Shown here: positions 39,813 to 55,429 of the stretch, one piece after another | Numbering within the stretch: position 1 is the stretch's first letter | Layout: each line of letters begins with the position of its first letter | Assembly (NCBI RefSeq): GCF_002367995.1 | Contig: NZ_AP018207.1 | Coordinates: 3,657,083-3,721,082 of the forward strand | Length of the DNA: 64,000 nt | Direction of reading: 5' to 3' | Origin: Calothrix brevissima NIES-22 | GTDB taxonomy: Bacteria > Cyanobacteriota > Cyanobacteriia > Cyanobacteriales > Nostocaceae | Notes under the pieces: generated by a model | Seen by the model: the letters and a program-made list of their open reading frames with translations, nothing else | Told to the model about the DNA's origin: nothing | The model's database searches: none | Made by a program: the position numbers and the translations under genes

Positions 39813-42593
39813 TTACAAATCAATTACAGCTTCTACTAAATCAGCACTGCGATAGAGACGAAAGCCGACTTTTTCACAAACACGTTGCATTGCCACATTT
39901 TCTGGGTGAATATCAGCAGTGATGCGCTTGATATGTTCGTTACGAGCGACATACAACAGTTGACTTAAAATGTTAGTACCTAACCCCATGCGTTGATATG
40001 GATCGCTGACTAAAAGCGCAAATTCCGCTTCTTTGACACCATGTAACTGACTCCAGCGTCCTACAGCGAGAATTTCGCGATCGCCTGTTATGGGGTTTTT
40101 GCGATCTGCAACTAACGCCATTTCGCGATCGTAGTCAATGAAACATAGGCGCAGCATCCGTTCGTGGGCGATTCGCTGACTTAGTTTCATCAGATGGAAA
40201 TAGCGAAAATAGACGCTTTGCTCTGAGAGTGTTTTATGGAACTGTACAATTAACGGCTCATCTTCGGGACGAATAGGGCGGATGGTAATTGCTGTACCAT
40301 CTTTGGTTGTCCAAGGCGTGATGTATTGTGTGGGATAAGGGCGAATCGCTAATTTTGGTAATTGTTCTTCTCTCAGTTCCGGTGGGTGGAGAACGATCCG
40401 CCCATCTAAAGCTAGTAATGAGGAAGATTTGTCTTCTTCTTGACTTCTACCTTCAAATCGCGCCCATAAGGGATTGATGTCAATTTCCTTAATCCAGGGC
40501 TGTTCTACGATTAATTGGGAAAATCTTACCAATAACTGCTCTAAAGCCGCTAAATCTACAGGTGCTCGTCCTCTTACGCCTTGGAGGGCTTTGTAAATTT
40601 GCGTTTGTTCCATCATCCGGCGTGCCAGGGTACTATTGAGGGGAGGAAGTGCGATCGCTCGATCTCTAAATACTTCCACTAATTGTCCCCCTGCGCCAAA
40701 CAGCAATACTGGGCCAAATTGAGGATCTAAGCTACTACCAATAATTAATTCATAGCCGCTATTCAGGTTAATCATTGGCTGCACTGTTACGCCTAAAAAG
40801 TGTTCTAAACCTACTTTTTCGGCAACAGCAGTTTTAATATTGCGATACGCCCAGCGTACAGCATCCGCATCCATAAGATTTAACTGCACACCACCCACAT
40901 CGGTTTTGTGGGTGATCGTCTTCGATAATAATTTGAGGACTACGGGATAACCCAGGGATTCTGCACAGCCAACAGCTTCATCTTCTGTGGCGGCGATGCA
41001 AGCTTGTAGGGTGGGAATACCGTAAGCCGCGAGGATTTGCTTGGATTCTGTTTCTGTGAGAATGGTTCGCCCGGCTTGATGGGCTGTGGTAATAATTTTA
41101 TCTACAAGATTGCGGTTGGGGATACCATCTTCTTCTGCTGGTAATACGGGAGTTTCGTAAATACCGCGCAGATTATAGCTAGACTTCCACATATAAGTGA
41201 ATATACGGGCAGCAGAATCGGGGTAAGAAAAGGTCGGAATCCCAGTACGATTGAGAATTGCTTCCCCAGCCATCACCTCAGCGCCACCCATCCAAGTTGC
41301 CAGAATTGGTTTGCTAGCAGGAACCTGTGCTTTTTCAATTGCAGATTTCAACTGTTCGGCAGTTTGGGTAGGATCAGTCATTGCCTGAGGAGTGAGAATC
41401 AGCAAGATACCATCACTATTTGGGTCTTTGGCAACAATCTCTAAGGTTTTGCTGTAGCGTTCTGGATCGGCGTCTCCCAAAATATCGATGGGGTTATTAT
41501 GACTCCAGAAAGATGGTAGGGTTTGATTGAGGGAGGTAATTGTCTCTGGTGCGAGTTCTGCTAGTTCTCCGCCATTGGTAATGAGAAAATCTGTAGCGAG
41601 GACACCGGGGCCGCCAGCGTTGGTAATCATCGTCAAACGCGGGCCTTTGGGGCGGGGCTGTTTTGCCAATACTTCCGCCATGTTAAACAGTTCAGAAATT
41701 CTGCTGACTCTTAGCACCCCACTGCGTCTAAAGGCAGCATCAAGAACTTCATCGCTACCAGTCAATGCGCCAGTATGGGAAGCGGAAGCTTTGGCGGCGG
41801 CTTCAGTGCGACCGGCTTTGATGAGAATAATCGGCTTGGTTAAAGCTACCTCACGGGCTGCTGAGAGAAATGACCGCGCATCCCCAATGGATTCCATGTA
41901 AATAACAATACTTTTGGTATGGGGATCGTCACCAAGATAGTAAATTAAATCGCCCCAACCAACATCTAACATCGAGCCGATGGAGATAAAAGCGCTAAAG
42001 CCGACATTCTCCCGCAAACTCCAGTCAAGAATTGAGGTGCAAAGGGCACCACTTTGGCTAATAAAGCCGACATTCCCAGGACGCGCCATTGTACTGGCGA
42101 AAGTGGCGTTTAATCCTGTATGGGGATTCATCACACCCAAGCAATTGGGGCCGATAATCCTGAGTTTACCTAAGCGGGCTTCATGTAAAATTTGCTGCTC
42201 TAATTCAATCCCAGGGGCACCAATTTCTTTAAATCCAGCAGAAACGATTACGGCACTTTTCACCCCGGCGGCGACGCATTCGCGGACAATTTTCGGCACT
42301 GTTGGGGCGGGTGTGGCAATGATTGCCAAATCTACTGCGTCCGGTACTTCTGCAATATTGGCGTAGCTCTTAATACCCATCACACTATGATGTTTTGGGT
42401 TTACAGGAAATACCGTACCGCCAAAAGGATTACCGATTAAATTCCAAAGCAAGGTACGTCCGACACTCCCAGGCGAGTCACTAGCCCCAATCACAGCCAC
42501 CGTTGCCGGCGCAAAAATGGAACTGAGGGGCTGGCGCTCGGTACGGAGGATGTCGAAGGTGGGATCGGTTTTGAATATAGAGGGGGTTTGCAT
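39813..42593 (-). CDS. NDP-forming acyl-CoA synthetase fused to a GNAT acetyltransferase
   Basis: This 926-residue protein has, in order: a CoA-binding domain ([20 protein letters not shown]), two succinyl-CoA-ligase-like parts with the [10 protein letters not shown] loop and the phospho-His motif [13 protein letters not shown], an ATP-grasp domain from about residue 490 ([20 protein letters not shown]), and a C-terminal GNAT domain from about 765 ([20 protein letters not shown]). It resembles the Pat-type lysine acetyltransferases, in which the synthetase part may be catalytic or only sense ligands. It stands alone. Confidence 0.93.
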
Positions 42594-47571: not shown

Positions 47572-48561
47572 CTATAATTTCGTTACCAAAGCAGCCATTT
47601 CTTCTTGAGTCAGGATTGGTGAAGAAAAAGCCGCTAAATTATTTGCTAAATGTTGGCGATTTCGAGTACCAACAACGACTACAGACACGGGTGTAAATTG
47701 CAAAACAAATTGAATTGCGATTTGAGCGATCGCTTCGTTTCCTTTTTGCTTAACCAGTTCTTGCAGTTTTTGAACAGTGTGATGCACCTTGATATCTTCA
47801 GTGACTTCCGGAAATAATTCGGGGTTTTGGATTATCTTAAACAGTTTCCCGGAAGCAAAAGCTTGTCTTGCAATTATCCCTACATTATCTTTTTCGAGCA
47901 AAGGGAATACTTGATCAACAGCACTTTGATTGAGTAAATTAATTTCTATTTGTAGTGAAGAACACCCAGGATAATTTAAACAAACTAATGCATCTTCTAC
48001 ATTGCGGCAAGCAATACCATAGTAGCGGATTTTACCTTGATATTTGAGTTTTTCTAATGTGTCAAATACCTCGCCGTTTCTAATCACCGATAGGGGAGGT
48101 TCATGCAATTGAAAAATATCTAAGTAATCAGTCTGCAATCTTTTTAAACTCGCTTCTACAGCACCGATCAAGTATGTATCAGAAAAATCCTGTCTTAATT
48201 GAGAAGACCTAGCTTGTAGAAGTGGCTGTTTTATGGGTTTGACTAAGCGGATAATTGGTTTGAGAAAAGGTTTAAGTTTTGCAATGATATTACCAGTATT
48301 TGATAAACAAAATCCGGCTTTGCTGGCATAAATTACGCGATCTCGTTGATTTTTAAAAGTTCTACCTACCAGCCTTTCGCTTTCTCCTTGACCATAAATA
48401 TCTGCAATATCGTAAAAATTAATCCCGCTATCAAGAGACTTTGACAAAGTTTTGATAATTTCCTGAGGACTTTGTTGATTAATCATTGAGCCAAAGTGTG
48501 ACCCTCCGATTCCCATTTCTGAAACTACAAGGTCGGTAGAGCCAAAGTTTCTATATTTCAT
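47572..48561 (-). CDS. Aldo/keto reductase
   Basis: This 329-residue (beta/alpha)8 NADPH-dependent reductase has the catalytic tetrad in DIADIYGQGESE (Asp, Tyr), VIYASKAGF (Lys) and LDIFQLHEPP (His), and the cofactor end VVVVGTRNRQHLANN. It is the first gene of a two-gene unit with the GMC oxidoreductase. The pair could interconvert a hydroxyl and a carbonyl on one molecule (inference). Confidence 0.93.
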   Translation of the reverse strand: MKYRNFGSTDLVVSEMGIGGSHFGSMINQQSPQEIIKTLSKSLDSGINFYDIADIYGQGESERLVGRTFKNQRDRVIYASKAGFCLSNTGNIIAKLKPFLKPIIRLVKPIKQPLLQARSSQLRQDFSDTYLIGAVEASLKRLQTDYLDIFQLHEPPLSVIRNGEVFDTLEKLKYQGKIRYYGIACRNVEDALVCLNYPGCSSLQIEINLLNQSAVDQVFPLLEKDNVGIIARQAFASGKLFKIIQNPELFPEVTEDIKVHHTVQKLQELVKQKGNEAIAQIAIQFVLQFTPVSVVVVGTRNRQHLANNLAAFSSPILTQEEMAALVTKL

Positions 48562-49326: not shown

Positions 49327-51471
49327 TTATGGCATGAGAAAGCTAAGATGTTCTCCATCCTGTGTGCGTAACTCATTCACTGTTCCTTGAAGTTTGAGTT
49401 CGCCTTTCTCTAGGAGAATCACCCAATCTGCCCGTTCAATCACTCTCGGACGATGGCTGATGATAATCGTCATTTTACCCTGACGGGAGAATAGTAATTT
49501 ATCCAACACCTCTGCTTCAGTTTGAGGATCTAGGGCACCGGTTGACTCATCTAAAATTAAAATTGGTGGTTCAGTAACAATACCTCTAGCAAGGGCTAAA
49601 CGTTGCCGTTGTCCCCCAGATAAATTTGCGCCAAATTCCCCCAGTACGGTTTGATATTTGTCAGGTAATTCGCTAATGAACTCATCAGCACCAGCAATTT
49701 GACAAGCCTTCACAATTTGTTCAAAGGTTGCTTGAGGATAGCTGAAGGAGAAATTTTCCAGAATTGACCGCTTCCAGAAATGCGCTTCTTGAGGTACTAA
49801 TACTATTTGTTGCCTGAGACTATCTAGGGACAGATCAGAATGATTATACATGCCAATGCGAATGTTGCCCGATTGCAGACTGTAAAGTCCCGCCAGCAGC
49901 TTCACTAAGGTACTTTTACCGCAACCAGACTTACCAATAAGCGCGATCGCTTTTCCGCCTGGAAGAGTCACAGAAAAATCTTTGAGTAAGTCGGTGCGTC
50001 CGGGGTGGTGAAAGTTAAGTTTTGTACAAACAATATCCACATCATCAGCAATGGTAGCCCAAGGTTTCTTTTCATCATTAGGGCTTTCTGCGGTAGCATC
50101 CAAAACTTCACTCAAGCGTTGAATGACCAATTGAGCAGTAATTAAATCATCCCCCAATCCGACTGTAAAATTGAGAAAGCCAATAAAATTGCTGCTCATG
50201 GAACTGAATGCTAGCAATTGACCAATGGTTAAGGAGCGATCGATCACTAAATAGCTGCCGATCCACAATAAGCTAACGCTGGTTAACCTGGAAAGAAAAT
50301 TGGTTAATGTCCTGCTGTAAATTGACAGTTTCATTGTGCTCCAATTGAGATGAGCTAACTGTCCAAAATTCTGCTGATATTCTTCTTGGGCTTGAGGAGT
50401 TGCTGGGGTGGTTTTCAAGACTTGAATACCACGAAATGTCTCGACTAAAAAACCCTGACTTTCACTTTTGAGTGCGATCGCTTCGCGAGTTTTGCGCCGT
50501 TGAGTTGGCATAAACAACAAATCAATGACGGTAATTACCAAAAAGCCCATAAAAGACACGCCGGTTAGCACCCAACTGTAAGAAAGCATAAAGCTTAGTG
50601 AAATCAGAGAAGTAAACAACTGGCTGGGCAGTTGTAAAACTACTTTCTGTACTAACGAATTCACCGTTCTGACATCAGAAAGGCGACTAGTTACTTCTCC
50701 ACTACGATGGGATTCAAAATAAGTCAGGGGTAAGTGTAATAACTTGTAGCCATACTCCATCTGTAGCCCAAGTTGCATCCTTTGCCCAAAATAGCCTAAT
50801 AAAAACGACTGCAAAACGCCAATTATATTACTAAATAGACTCAGGGCAATTACCCCCAGCGCCACAACTGTTAATAGTTGGGTATCACCTCGCACCAATA
50901 CATCATCAGTCAAGATTTGTGTGAGAAAGGGGGATGCTAAAGATAGTAAACCAATGGAAATATTCAGAGCGATCGCTTGTAACAAAATCCCGCGATAAGG
51001 AAACGCCCGTCTCACAAATCGCCCAAAACTACCAACTTTGTCAGATTCTTGGGCATAAAAGCGGTGTTCGTCGATTTGCAGCAGCAAAATGACACTATTA
51101 CGCCAACCTTGCAGCAATTCTTCCTTAGTCAGATAGCGCAACCCAATCGCCGGATCGCCAATAATATATTTCTTACCGCGCTTGCCATACAACACTACCC
51201 AGTGATAACCTTTCCAATGGATAATCGCTGGCAAAGGAAATTGCTCCATCTTTTCCAAAAAGTCTTGACCGACTTTCACACCTCTAGCATGAAATCCCAG
51301 GGCTTCACAGCCACGTTTCAAGCCTAGTAACGTTGTACCTGTTTGTATGGTGCCTACAGTTTCGCGAATGCGGCTGATAGTGAATCTGCGCCCGTAAAAC
51401 TGGGAGATCATTGCCAAGCAAGCAGCACCGCAGTCTTCTTGGCTATGTTGGCGGACATAGGGATATTTCAT
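49327..51471 (-). CDS. Peptidase-containing ABC transporter (C39, PCAT)
   Basis: This 714-residue protein cuts double-glycine leader peptides and exports the cargo. The N-terminal C39 peptidase has HSQEDCGAACLA with C14, GYHWVVLYG with H90 and IGDPAIG with D106. Six membrane helices follow at about 160-430. The ATPase has Walker A GKSGCGKST, signature LSGGQRQRLA and Walker B PILILDESTGALD. It is divergent from the precursor gene at 51805, whose leader has a matching GG site, and the HlyD adaptor at 53314 completes the export system. Confidence 0.96.
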   Translation of the reverse strand: MKYPYVRQHSQEDCGAACLAMISQFYGRRFTISRIRETVGTIQTGTTLLGLKRGCEALGFHARGVKVGQDFLEKMEQFPLPAIIHWKGYHWVVLYGKRGKKYIIGDPAIGLRYLTKEELLQGWRNSVILLLQIDEHRFYAQESDKVGSFGRFVRRAFPYRGILLQAIALNISIGLLSLASPFLTQILTDDVLVRGDTQLLTVVALGVIALSLFSNIIGVLQSFLLGYFGQRMQLGLQMEYGYKLLHLPLTYFESHRSGEVTSRLSDVRTVNSLVQKVVLQLPSQLFTSLISLSFMLSYSWVLTGVSFMGFLVITVIDLLFMPTQRRKTREAIALKSESQGFLVETFRGIQVLKTTPATPQAQEEYQQNFGQLAHLNWSTMKLSIYSRTLTNFLSRLTSVSLLWIGSYLVIDRSLTIGQLLAFSSMSSNFIGFLNFTVGLGDDLITAQLVIQRLSEVLDATAESPNDEKKPWATIADDVDIVCTKLNFHHPGRTDLLKDFSVTLPGGKAIALIGKSGCGKSTLVKLLAGLYSLQSGNIRIGMYNHSDLSLDSLRQQIVLVPQEAHFWKRSILENFSFSYPQATFEQIVKACQIAGADEFISELPDKYQTVLGEFGANLSGGQRQRLALARGIVTEPPILILDESTGALDPQTEAEVLDKLLFSRQGKMTIIISHRPRVIERADWVILLEKGELKLQGTVNELRTQDGEHLSFLMP

Positions 51472-51804
51472 TGGGGAGCAATTTTACAGGTTTCATTATT
51501 TCAGGGTTCCCCATAAACCACAGTTACTCACAAAAATACCTACAGCGATTCGTCAATCAGGAATATTATCGGCGGAAGTTTCATATAGTATATACTTAGT
51601 AAAGTATATAACCAATCAAAACCAAGTGGTATAAGATTTATTGATAACAAAGCCTAACTCTGTTCACAAAAAATTGATGATTTGCCCCCTGAGTGACTGA
51701 TTTTCTTTTTAGAAGCTTCATAGTAAATTCGTCAGTTGCACGGCTGAAGAACCAGAGTAAATAAACCATACTTTATTTATCAACACAAGTGCAGGTTTAA
51801 ACAC

Positions 51805-52017
51805 ATGCAAGCCATTAATGATATTTTAGGTTCTGAACTAGAAATTGGCGCTGAATTGACCGAAGCGCAAATGGAACTTCTCTCTGGTGGATGTGGTGGT
51901 CGTGGCGGTAAAGGTAAATCAAGAGGTAAAGGAAAAGGATCTTCATGTAAGTCGTCATCTTCTTCATCTAAATCTGGATGTAAAAAAACAACAACCGGAG
52001 GTGGAGGTCTTGAATAA
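51805..52017 (+). CDS. Double-glycine RiPP/bacteriocin-like precursor peptide
   Basis: This 70-residue peptide has a leader MQAINDILGSELEIGAELTE then AQMELLSGG, a classic GG cleavage motif (G28-G29). The predicted 41-residue core begins CGGRGGKGKSRGKGKGSS and has three Cys (30, 48, 59), ten Ser (six in a row, 50-55), three Thr, eight Lys, two Arg and a Gly4 run. It is highly basic. The transporter that could cut and export it is encoded divergently, and a strong terminator follows. No cyclodehydratase, lanthionine synthetase or radical SAM gene is in the window, so the modification, if any, is unknown. Confidence 0.88.
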   Translation: MQAINDILGSELEIGAELTEAQMELLSGGCGGRGGKGKSRGKGKGSSCKSSSSSSKSGCKKTTTGGGGLE

Positions 52018-52074
52018 TTCGAGTCAAAAATTTAAATCCTACTGAAATAGTTAATTAAGATAAAAAAATTCAAT

Positions 52075-52116
52075 TAGCCAGCAACTTGAGTTAATAAGTT
52101 GCTGGCTAGTTTTTTA
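52075..52116 (+). terminator. Terminator of the precursor gene
   Basis: TAGCCAGCAACTT pairs perfectly with AAGTTGCTGGCTA with an 8-base loop, followed by TTTTTT. Confidence 0.92.
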
Positions 52117-52175
52117 CTATTGGTAAATTATGGGTATCATCCCAAATATGCAAAAATGCCCTCATCCTCAAGCTA

Positions 52176-52244
52176 GTAGGTTGGGTCGAAGAATGAGACC
52201 CAACACTCAACTAATGTTGGGTTTCGTTCCTCAACCCAACCTAC
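52176..52244. repeat. GTAGGTTGGGT palindromic repeat, simple copy
   Basis: GTAGGTTGGGT and ACCCAACCTAC are inverted repeats, with inner ACCCAACA/TGTTGGGT. This is the uninterrupted version of the composite at 31611-31858. Confidence 0.85.
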
Positions 52245-52304
52245 ATCGGGAGCAACATTTTGAAAAAGTTTAAGTATGTGTAGTATTCAGGGAAAAATAT
52301 CGTT

Positions 52305-53313: not shown

Positions 53314-54729
53314 ATGTTAAGTCACACCAGCCCAGACAATGCTTTATCTCCCAACGCACCTTTACCAACTGTTCCCAAAGGCTCTCCACCCACAGATCAG
53401 GGTATTGAAACAGAGAAACTCCAAACCGCCAAAATCAATGAATTTCTGCCCCCTTTAGGAATTTGGACAAAATTAAGTGGATTGTTCATGCTGGCTGGAT
53501 TTGGATCTGCTGTGGCATTAGCATCGATCGCGGAATACAATGTTGTGGTTAAAGCACCTGCGATTGTGCGTCCGGCTGGTGAGATACGTTTAGTACAAGC
53601 AGCAATGGAAGGGACTGTGAAGCAGATTACTGTGCAGGAAAATCAAGTTGTCCGCCAAGGCGATGCGATCGCAATATTAGAAGATTCTCAATTACAAACC
53701 AAAGCCAGTCAACTCAGAAGTAGCATTCAACAAAACCAGTTACAATTAGCTCAAATTGCCGCCGGGTTGGGAGCATTAGATACCAAAATTAATGCGGAAA
53801 CCACGGCAATGCAGCGCTCCATTACCTCTGCACAAGCTGAATTCAGCCGCAATCAGAGGGAATTTGAGAATTTGCAAGTTAGCACAGAAACGGAAGTTAA
53901 AGAGGCAAAAGCCGCTTTATCTCTAGCCCAAGATGAGTTAAACCGCTATCTTAATTTAGGAGAAACCGGTGCTGTGACTAAGTTGCAAATTAAAGAAAAG
54001 GAATCGGCAACACAAACGGCTCAAGCTCGCTTAGAACGAGCTACCTCTCAGCTTAATCCTAGTCGGGCTACAGTTGCACTAGCCCAAGAAAAAATTGCTT
54101 TAGCTCAGGCTCAAGGTAAGTCAGCTTTGGCTAGCTTACACCAAGAACGGGAAGGTTTGATACAGCAACAATTAACTATTAAAAGCCAAATTGATAAAGA
54201 CCAAAAAGACTTGAATCAGCTAGAGATTGATCGAGAAAAGGCAATTGTGCGATCGCCTTTAAGTGGAACTATTCTCAAGCTAGAATTGAGAAACCCCGGT
54301 CAAGTTGTGCATCCAGGAAATACTATTGCCCAAATTACGCCAAATCAGAATTCTTTATTGATTAAGGCTAGGGTAGCGGCTAGTGATGTTGCTAATGTCA
54401 AAATCTGCAAAGCCAGCCAAATTAAGAATTGTCAAGAAGGTAAGGTATTTTTGCGCATCTCTGCATATCCCTACACAGATTACAGTACATTAACAGGAGC
54501 AGTAACTGCGATCGCTCCTGATGCCATTACATCCCAAGGAGTTAATAGCGCAAACGATATTGCTCCCTATTATGAAGTAATTATTACGCCTGAAAAATTG
54601 TATTTAGAGCGAAATAACCAGCAGTACCCTATCCAAGCCGGGATGGAAGTTTCAGCAGAGATAGTTGCTCATAAGGAAACAGTACTGACATTTATTTTAA
54701 GAAAGGCGAGATTGTTGACTAAATTTTAA
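53314..54729 (+). CDS. HlyD-family membrane fusion protein
   Basis: This 471-residue periplasmic adaptor has a short cytoplasmic N-terminus, one membrane helix (LSGLFMLAGFGSAVALASIA), a lipoyl half-motif (VVKAPAIVRPAGEIRLVQAA), a long coiled coil (about 130-300) and the second half (VRSPLSGTILKLELRNPGQV). It connects an inner-membrane exporter to a TolC-like outer channel. The PCAT transporter nearby is the natural partner. The start ATG has a nearby GAGG. Confidence 0.94.
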   Translation: MLSHTSPDNALSPNAPLPTVPKGSPPTDQGIETEKLQTAKINEFLPPLGIWTKLSGLFMLAGFGSAVALASIAEYNVVVKAPAIVRPAGEIRLVQAAMEGTVKQITVQENQVVRQGDAIAILEDSQLQTKASQLRSSIQQNQLQLAQIAAGLGALDTKINAETTAMQRSITSAQAEFSRNQREFENLQVSTETEVKEAKAALSLAQDELNRYLNLGETGAVTKLQIKEKESATQTAQARLERATSQLNPSRATVALAQEKIALAQAQGKSALASLHQEREGLIQQQLTIKSQIDKDQKDLNQLEIDREKAIVRSPLSGTILKLELRNPGQVVHPGNTIAQITPNQNSLLIKARVAASDVANVKICKASQIKNCQEGKVFLRISAYPYTDYSTLTGAVTAIAPDAITSQGVNSANDIAPYYEVIITPEKLYLERNNQQYPIQAGMEVSAEIVAHKETVLTFILRKARLLTKF

Positions 54730-54912: not shown

Positions 54913-55252
54913 GTCATACAAGAATATGACAGATCGTAGGAGCATTGGGCATGGGGCATGGGGCAAAAGTCAAATAGAATTCTTAATGCGCGAATTTTGA
55001 ATTGTTTGTCTCCCTTGTCCCCCTTGTCTCCTTTCCCTAATTATTTTTTTCCCTCACAACTTCCTCAAATTTTTACCTTAACTTGAAATTACAGGCAACA
55101 TCAGGTGACTACCAAAAACCGCAAGGGATCGTACATCGTTGTATTGCTGATGAGGTTGGTGAACCTGCGCTAGCAGCAAAAATGACAATTTAGCAGTTAG
55201 TAAAGGTTTGCTGATTGCAAAAGATTAGTTACAGAATGTGCAGGAGCTAGCT

Positions 55253-55429
55253 ATGAAAACCCAACATTATTCTGAGTTTCAACCCAATGAACTCCTCATC
55301 AGTTTGGTGTTACTCCTGTTCATGTTGCTGGGAGGAACTGTTTGGTGGATTGGGGTAAGTAGAAAACCCGAACATTTTACACCGCGTACTGTTCCTTTGG
55401 AGATAGAGATATATCAGATGTTTGCTTAG
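55253..55429 (+). CDS. Small single-span membrane protein
   Basis: This 58-residue protein (MKTQHYSEFQPNELLISLVL) has one membrane helix (LLISLVLLLFMLLGGTVWWIGV) and a short soluble C-terminus. A GGAG lies 6 bases before ATG 55253; a GTG 15 bases earlier is also in frame. Not recognised. It sits between HlyD and another small gene. Confidence 0.6.
   Translation: MKTQHYSEFQPNELLISLVLLLFMLLGGTVWWIGVSRKPEHFTPRTVPLEIEIYQMFA

What the first reader, a model, noticed from the sequence alone, without database searches (positions are those of the whole stretch)
51805..52017. Unusual double-glycine precursor: Ser/Lys/Gly/Cys core with no modifying enzyme nearby
The core after SGG has six Ser in a row, ten Ser in total, ten basic residues, three Cys and a Gly4 run. 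Its composition recalls microcin-B17-like Gly/Ser/Cys cores, but with many lysines. The transporter (C39 PCAT) and HlyD partner are present, while YcaO, LanM, radical SAM and other maturases are absent. Either the enzyme is elsewhere, or it is an unmodified disulfide peptide, or the modification is of a new type.
Basis: partly seen in the sequence, partly recalled or inferred. Interest (0 to 1): 0.72.

Follow-up and report, generated by a model that had tools for sequence, protein, structure and literature searches.

The report
Secreted lysine-serine-glycine peptide of a cyanobacterium
A cyanobacterium carries a small gene for a strongly positively charged glycine-serine-lysine peptide that a neighbouring pump most likely trims and exports; it is probably an unmodified exported peptide of unusual composition, and its purpose is not known.

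Summary
Window 51805-52017 (+) is a real 70-codon gene: a canonical double-glycine leader (29 aa) and a 41-residue core (13 Gly, 10 Ser, 10 Lys/Arg, 3 Cys, six Ser in a row), with its own strong terminator and coding-like codon use. A divergent C39 peptidase-ABC exporter and an HlyD gene flank it, the layout of cyanobacterial 'group III' double-glycine clusters.

The missing maturase is not anomalous. Of 82 loci around the nearest exporter relatives (64-68% identical), 2 have a LanM and none a YcaO or a class V kinase/lyase found by BLAST. The host genome has no LanC-like match, while 7 of 7 congeners have; so LanM chemistry is out. Its YcaO genes are over 1 Mb away.

No convincing homologue was found elsewhere; one ORF in the same genome shares the leader, with a core free of Ser, Cys and Lys.

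Best reading: an unmodified, at most disulfide-bonded, polycationic exported peptide, working like the EbfG matrix peptides (0.5). Main rival: dehydration in trans by a solitary class V-type kinase/HopA1 pair 281 kb away, because similar Lys/Ser/Gly cores in other cyanobacteria sit beside such pairs and one such cluster's exporter is a near relative.

The parts
51805..52017 (+). Precursor gene, 70 codons and stop
51805..51891 (+). Double-glycine leader, 29 aa (predicted cut after Gly29)
   Evidence: shared with an ORF at G000:C1:7942896
51892..52014 (+). Core, 41 aa, Gly/Ser/Lys/Cys-rich
52072..52111 (+). Terminator-like hairpin after the precursor
49327..51471 (-). C39 peptidase-ABC exporter, 714 aa, with DCGAAC and the Walker and signature motifs present
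53314..54729 (+). HlyD-type adaptor, 471 aa
52305..53234 (-). Ser/Thr protein kinase with 4-Cys prefix, between precursor and HlyD; part of the system uncertain
51472..51804 (.). Divergent intergenic region between exporter and precursor

Best explanation
The gene makes a 70-residue precursor whose leader is recognised by the neighbouring C39-ABC exporter. The C39 domain cuts after Gly-Gly, and the exporter with HlyD and an outer-membrane channel encoded elsewhere releases a 41-residue, very hydrophilic polycation. The peptide is not enzymatically modified; at most its three Cys form disulfides outside the cell. By charge and composition it probably binds acidic sheath or matrix polysaccharide or the cell surface, working like the EbfG matrix peptides of Synechococcus elongatus. 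Shown: gene, leader, exporter, adaptor, terminator, no LanC-type match in the genome. Inferred: cleavage, export, lack of modification, matrix role.
For: Canonical leader and exporter with its motifs. Divergent exporter/HlyD locus of congener G003 (L301) holds another double-glycine ORF between the two genes, and exporters of G006 (L069) and G000's second one (L067, repeated PQPVCPP core) have one upstream. The exporter is sister to 83 others (support 0.989). In 82 loci around such relatives (80, 2 plasmid loci) BLAST with one query each found LanM in 2, YcaO, LanK and LanY in 0; a radical-SAM motif in 1. 37 of 80 have a GG ORF within 4 kb upstream, median core 93.5 aa; 1 of 4 such proteins scanned is beta/gamma-crystallin-like. 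No LANC_like in G000 against 7 of 7 congeners. The ORF with the same leader has a core without Ser, Cys or Lys, so the leader need not mark substrates of a Ser/Cys enzyme. Precedent: EbfG1-4 depend on the C39 cysteine of PteB for efficient secretion, and three peptides starting right after GG/GA were detected in the medium (PMC4997328); EbfG1-3 form amyloid (PMC9981879).
Against: Gly+Ser+Lys+Arg is 0.80 of this core but at most 0.41 in 48 cores beside related exporters. The cores closest in style sit beside LanK/LanY-like pairs, and in the exporter tree the next branch outside the window's clade holds L036 and L257, the latter the exporter of such a cluster with an SKSKSKSK core (support 1.0). 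LanM lies beside 61% identical exporters in three congeners, outside the window's clade. The leader-sharing ORF lies 200 bp before a tandem RimK-type ligase. G000's third short exporter (L068) has no GG ORF in its intergenic region. The matrix role is analogy only: no EbfG or PteB sequence was compared, and with a hydrophobic fraction of 0.02 this core is not expected to form amyloid.
Confidence: 0.5

Rival explanations
1. Class V-type peptide modified in trans: the solitary LanK/LanY-like pair 281 kb away phosphorylates Ser/Thr and eliminates phosphate; Cys or Lys add to the dehydro residues, giving lanthionine or lysinoalanine cross-links before export.
For: G000 has one LanK-like/HopA1 pair, full length by Pfam, LanK-like 42% identical to that of L254. 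Of 8 loci with Lys/Ser/Gly-type precursors fetched, 7 have HopA1 within 2 kb. The L257 exporter is a near relative. G263 shows that such a precursor can lie away from its pairs. The pair has no precursor recognised in the 20 kb fetched, and a query with the G263 precursor found only an E 0.886 match in G000, so the pair lacks another known substrate. Kinase plus HopA1 lyase as dehydratase: PMC9486802 (passages).
Against: The leader does not score as a member of that leader family: 8.0 bits against -0.3 to 17.0 for 19 other GG leaders and 28.7 for the held-out G263 leader; upstream half 2.7 bits, reached by 18 of 200 shuffles. The leader-sharing ORF has no Ser or Cys and one Thr. The same solitary pair stands in G001 and G005, where no such precursor was found.
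Confidence: 0.17
2. Antimicrobial bacteriocin: an unmodified or disulfide-bonded cationic peptide that kills competitors.
For: Cationic core with Cys, bacteriocin-type exporter; species-specific as expected of warfare peptides.
Against: Hydrophobic fraction 0.02, so no membrane-inserting helix. No immunity gene was identified; a 63 aa ORF at 55238-55429 with a hydrophobic stretch matched no Pfam family and was not studied.
Confidence: 0.13
3. Another modification: phosphorylation of the Ser run by the adjacent kinase, or C-terminal tailing (core ends in Glu) by the tandem RimK-type ligase encoded beside the leader-sharing ORF.
For: Kinase between precursor and HlyD with no orthologue above 48% in the genus, so perhaps part of the same cassette. 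RimK family score 157 bits, over its cut-off of 143.
Against: The kinase is on the other strand, its family has many members per genome (5-8 matches at E 1e-60 or better in each of 8 genomes), and kinase relatives in the 10-kb flanks of related exporters were few and 30-39% identical. A hairpin resembling a terminator, seen by eye, separates the leader-sharing ORF from the RimK gene. No RimK relative was found in plasmids or viral contigs.
Confidence: 0.08
4. Decaying or non-functional gene.
For: No convincing homologue outside the genome; no sigma-70-like promoter excess.
Against: Intact frame, canonical leader, terminator, codon use, leader constraint.
Confidence: 0.06

Closest known systems
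Cyanobacterial group III double-glycine ('bacteriocin') clusters, Wang et al. 2011 (PMC3140520; parts 1-3 of 5 of the text read)
   Same: Short C39-ABC exporter plus HlyD, small double-glycine precursor; many precursors fall outside NHLP and N11P; little core conservation
   Different: Extreme Lys/Ser/Gly content of the core; placement in their tree not tested; their supplementary precursor table not seen
EbfG1-4 / PteB of Synechococcus elongatus PCC 7942 (PMC4997328 parts 1-2 of 5 and passages read; PMC9981879 and PMC8092324 passages)
   Same: Small double-glycine proteins whose secretion needs a C39 transporter; no maturase mentioned in what I read
   Different: No sequence comparison made; EbfG1-3 have hydrophobic amyloid hotspots, this core has almost no hydrophobic residue
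Putative class V lanthipeptide precursors of cyanobacteria ('type-B', PMC9486802; passages read)
   Same: Some Lys/Ser/Gly/Cys-rich cores behind GG leaders, with C39 exporters beside them in L253, L254 and L257
   Different: Those I collected share a GSELFxDSESFLxEL leader and mostly have LanK/LanY nearby; that they are the paper's type-B is my inference, its alignment was not seen
Double-glycine proteins beside the nearest exporters (e.g. L265, plasmid of Nostoc sp. UHCC 0302)
   Same: Related exporter (67.8%), GG leaders, no maturase annotated beside it
   Different: Mostly about 100-140 aa, not low complexity; some beta/gamma-crystallin-like
PCAT-type 'ABC-type bacteriocin transporter' 4ry2
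   Same: C39 peptidase-ABC architecture over the whole length
   Different: Distant homologue (E 4e-100); substrate unrelated as far as known to me

Membership tests
Cyanobacterial group III double-glycine cluster | Short-type C39-ABC exporter without N-terminal CAP_ED domain | tested here: met
   C39 at residues 2-130 of 714
Cyanobacterial group III double-glycine cluster | HlyD gene present, no second peptidase-less ABC exporter nearby | tested here: met
   (39 window ORFs scanned)
Cyanobacterial group III double-glycine cluster | Precursor with double-glycine leader nearby | tested here: met
Cyanobacterial group III double-glycine cluster | Exporter falls in clade III of the published tree | not tested
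   Reference sequences not at hand
NHLP / N11P precursor families | Match to the family profile | tested here: not met
   No NCBIfam match up to E 1
Class I/II lanthipeptide | LanC-like cyclase or LanM in the genome | tested here: not met
   0 PF05147 matches at E 0.001 in G000, 1-4 in each of 7 congeners
Class V lanthipeptide (cyanobacterial) | LanK and LanY beside the precursor | tested here: not met
   None among 39 window ORFs; one pair 281 kb away
Class V lanthipeptide (cyanobacterial) | Leader of the GSELFxDSESFLxEL kind | tested here: not met
   8.0 bits, within the range of 19 other GG leaders
Class V lanthipeptide (cyanobacterial) | Core with Cys and Ser/Thr | tested here: met
   3 Cys, 10 Ser, 3 Thr
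Class V lanthipeptide (cyanobacterial) | Dehydrated, thioether-linked product | not testable with these tools
   Needs mass spectrometry
Microcin B17-like / TOMM | YcaO cyclodehydratase beside the precursor | tested here: not met
   3 YcaO matches in G000, all over 1 Mb away on the same contig
EbfG-type matrix peptide | Secreted by a C39 transporter and needed for biofilm | not testable with these tools
   Needs experiment; EbfG/PteB sequences not compared

The most novel reading that the evidence does not exclude
A dispersed peptide-maturation system: the lysine-serine-rich precursor is dehydrated in trans by the solitary LanK/LanY-like pair and becomes a polycation cross-linked by lysinoalanine and lanthionine (or is tailed by the RimK-type ligase encoded beside the ORF that shares its leader), a kind of exported cross-linked polycation I know of from no described cyanobacterial system.
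Probability: 0.17. Interest if true: 0.75.

Novelty: new member of a known kind. Interest (0 to 1): 0.4.

Why it matters
It is a clean test case for what the many cyanobacterial 'bacteriocin' loci without a maturase export. The host has no LanC-type match, so one intact-mass measurement separates an unmodified polycation from class V-type dehydration at a distance. It also led to a set of Lys/Ser/Gly-rich precursors beside LanK/LanY-like pairs in other cyanobacteria that deserves study in its own right.

Tried and rejected
Lanthionine formation by LanM: rejected for this genome. Microcin B17/TOMM: rejected by distance of YcaO and lack of a family match. NHLP/N11P: no match. Membership in the LanK/LanY leader family: tested, not met.

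Homologues of the precursor. Genus, 8 genomes with the own: 4 of 7 congeners had a match at E up to 1, best 0.043, none convincing. Order, 388 genomes with the own: 23 had a match at E up to 1, best foreign 0.049. Family, 217 genomes with the own, two-row profile: 77 at E up to 1; best foreign 0.0011 (G004), 0.0013 (G527, in a 1730-codon frame), 0.0023 (G001). The G004 ORF is a mersacidin/lichenicidin-family precursor by NCBIfam; G001's looks alike by coordinates and frame length but was not scanned. No match in plasmids with the precursor or in phages with its first 41 aa, both at E up to 10.

Aldo/keto reductase 47572-48561 as a tailoring enzyme: 22% identical to the one beside LanK/LanY in L294 and 766 bp from the exporter gene; not pursued. 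Rfam hits at 52164-52253 are sub-threshold microRNA models on a palindrome; dismissed. The statement that the exporter clade serves only unmodified substrates was given up: LanM occurs in 2 of 82 loci and beside 61% identical exporters of three congeners outside the clade. In the tree output I printed at most 25 names per clade. The scan behind the 80 loci kept the best 80 of 213 relatives found by short peptide patterns, and only 60 of 80 have 3 kb upstream.

Full report
Observation. The ORF at 51805-52017 (+) is as described. Its leader fits the double-glycine consensus quoted in PMC3140520 with conservative changes. A strict pattern occurs in 1 of 213 window ORFs of 40-130 aa and in none of 60 simulated windows. 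Codon use resembles that of window genes (0 of 2000 nulls reach it), and a strong terminator hairpin follows. The core has 13 Gly, 10 Ser, 8 Lys, 2 Arg, 3 Cys in 41 aa, calculated pI 10.25. I regard the gene as real.

Surroundings. A C39-ABC exporter lies divergently on the left; on the right come a Ser/Thr kinase on the other strand and an HlyD gene. Among 39 window ORFs scanned with Pfam there is no YcaO, LANC_like, HopA1 or Radical_SAM match; the one ATP-grasp match is in a CoA-ligase/acetyltransferase protein at 39813-42593. The hydrogenase-side neighbourhood of four congeners (G001, G002, G003, G007) has no match to exporter, precursor or HlyD and only 26% kinase matches; in the six congeners fetched for it, the best HlyD relative (54-57%) has no exporter match within the fetched stretch. 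The best kinase relative in the genus is 48%. The cassette looks specific to this lineage within the genus (inference).

Relatives of the precursor. One other ORF in the same genome shares the leader (G000:C1:7942896, E 0.0013 with the leader query). Over 27 aligned codons dN is 0.19 and dS 0.79, while the 60 bases upstream are 32% identical. Its core, EEGEGGDGPPPPPPEEGT, is acidic and has no Ser, Cys or Lys. No convincing homologue was found elsewhere; the weak matches are told in Tried and rejected.

Relatives of the exporter. One scan of genome contigs gave 213 relatives, of which the best 80 were kept, 64-68% identical. In a 118-sequence tree the window exporter is sister to 83 others, support 0.989; the next branch holds L036 (G003) and L257, the exporter of a LanK/LanY-like cluster, support 1.0. 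In 82 loci (the 80 and two plasmid loci) BLAST with one query each found LanM in 2 and YcaO, LanK and LanY in 0; a radical-SAM motif occurred in 1. 37 of 80 have a GG ORF within 4 kb upstream (33 of the 60 with at least 3 kb upstream); their 48 cores have a median length of 93.5 aa, and none reaches 0.6 in Gly+Ser+Lys+Arg, against 0.80 here. One of four such proteins scanned is beta/gamma-crystallin-like, and one gene near the exporter of L265 is so annotated. So lack of a known maturase is the rule in this clade, but the window core is not of the clade's usual type. LanM-linked exporters of three congeners are 61% identical and branch outside.

Enzymes elsewhere in the genome. PF05147 has no match in G000 (completeness 100, 9 contigs) but 1-4 in each of 7 congeners. 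YcaO has three matches, all over 1 Mb from the precursor on the same contig. HopA1 has one match, 281 kb away, beside a LanK-like gene, with no precursor or exporter recognised in the 20 kb fetched; the same solitary pair stands in G001 and G005.

Similar cores. A weak hit of the leader search (G263, E 0.11) has the core CAGKSGKSGRSKSGKSNKSC... Searching with its whole precursor led to double-glycine precursors with cores such as GSKKGSKKGSKK, SKSKSKSK and RSRSRSRS in other families. Of 8 such loci fetched (L253-L260), 7 have a HopA1 gene within 2 kb; the eighth shows, by eye, only a LanK-like fragment. The kinase/HopA1 pairs of five of them were confirmed with Pfam and NCBIfam, where LxmK scores of 70-101 bits stay below the cut-off of 315. 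Four further loci (L261-L264) have no HopA1 match on the fetched stretch. Of 35 distinct leaders of this kind collected, 6 cores reach 0.6 in Gly+Ser+Lys+Arg, 4 of them with 15% or more Lys/Arg. A profile of 33 of these leaders gives the window leader 8.0 bits (1 of 200 shuffles reach it), no more than 19 other GG leaders (-0.3 to 17.0), and the held-out G263 leader 28.7: the window leader is a general C39 leader, not of this family. That cyanobacterial class V candidates exist is published (PMC9486802, passages; PMC7794033, passages). I saw no text on Lys/Ser-rich cores among them, but searched for it only.

Mechanism. Shown: gene, leader, exporter, adaptor, terminator, no LanC-type match. 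Inferred: cleavage after Gly29, export, no modification. The closest functional precedent is EbfG/PteB, where peptides starting after GG/GA were found in the medium and the C39 cysteine is needed for efficient secretion (PMC4997328), and where EbfG1-3 form amyloid (PMC9981879, passages). With a hydrophobic fraction of 0.02 this core would act as a soluble polycation rather than as amyloid. The main rival, LanK/LanY in trans, has the core style, the presence of the pair and the L257 exporter in its favour, and the leader test and the Ser-free core of the leader-sharing ORF against it.

Verdict. A real, unusual precursor, found so far in one species, of a known kind of locus. The missing maturase is normal for the exporter clade. 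One intact-mass measurement would settle the open point.

Noticed in passing
   Followed up: partly
L066 7897-10097 (G000, about 7.94 Mb): ORF sharing the window leader, with an acidic Gly/Pro core, followed 200 bp on by a 611 aa tandem RimK-family ATP-grasp ligase (halves 38% identical); a terminator-like hairpin, seen by eye, lies between.
   Followed up: partly
G000 against G001-G007: The window's genome has no LANC_like match although each of seven congeners has one to four.
   Followed up: no
L067 10506-10751 (-), upstream of G000's second short C39 exporter: 81 aa double-glycine ORF with a repeated PQPVCPP core.
   Followed up: no
L292 9882-12481 (-); L293 and L297 in G001 and G005: Solitary LanK/LanY-like pair in three species of the genus without a precursor recognised nearby; substrates unknown.
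   Followed up: partly
window 52164-52253: Long palindrome (GTAGGTTGGG...CCCAACCTAC) between precursor and kinase, perhaps a dispersed repeat; hits microRNA models below threshold.
   Followed up: no
L065 1-12000 / L033 (G354): Double-glycine ORF with seven His in a row, about 2 kb before a lasso-peptide-type cyclase (over its NCBIfam cut-off), an HPr-kinase-like protein and an ABC exporter.
   Followed up: no
L294 3552-9175, L296 2639-10893: LanK/LanY clusters with several hydrophobic-core precursors and an aldo/keto-reductase-like gene next to the lyase.
   Followed up: no
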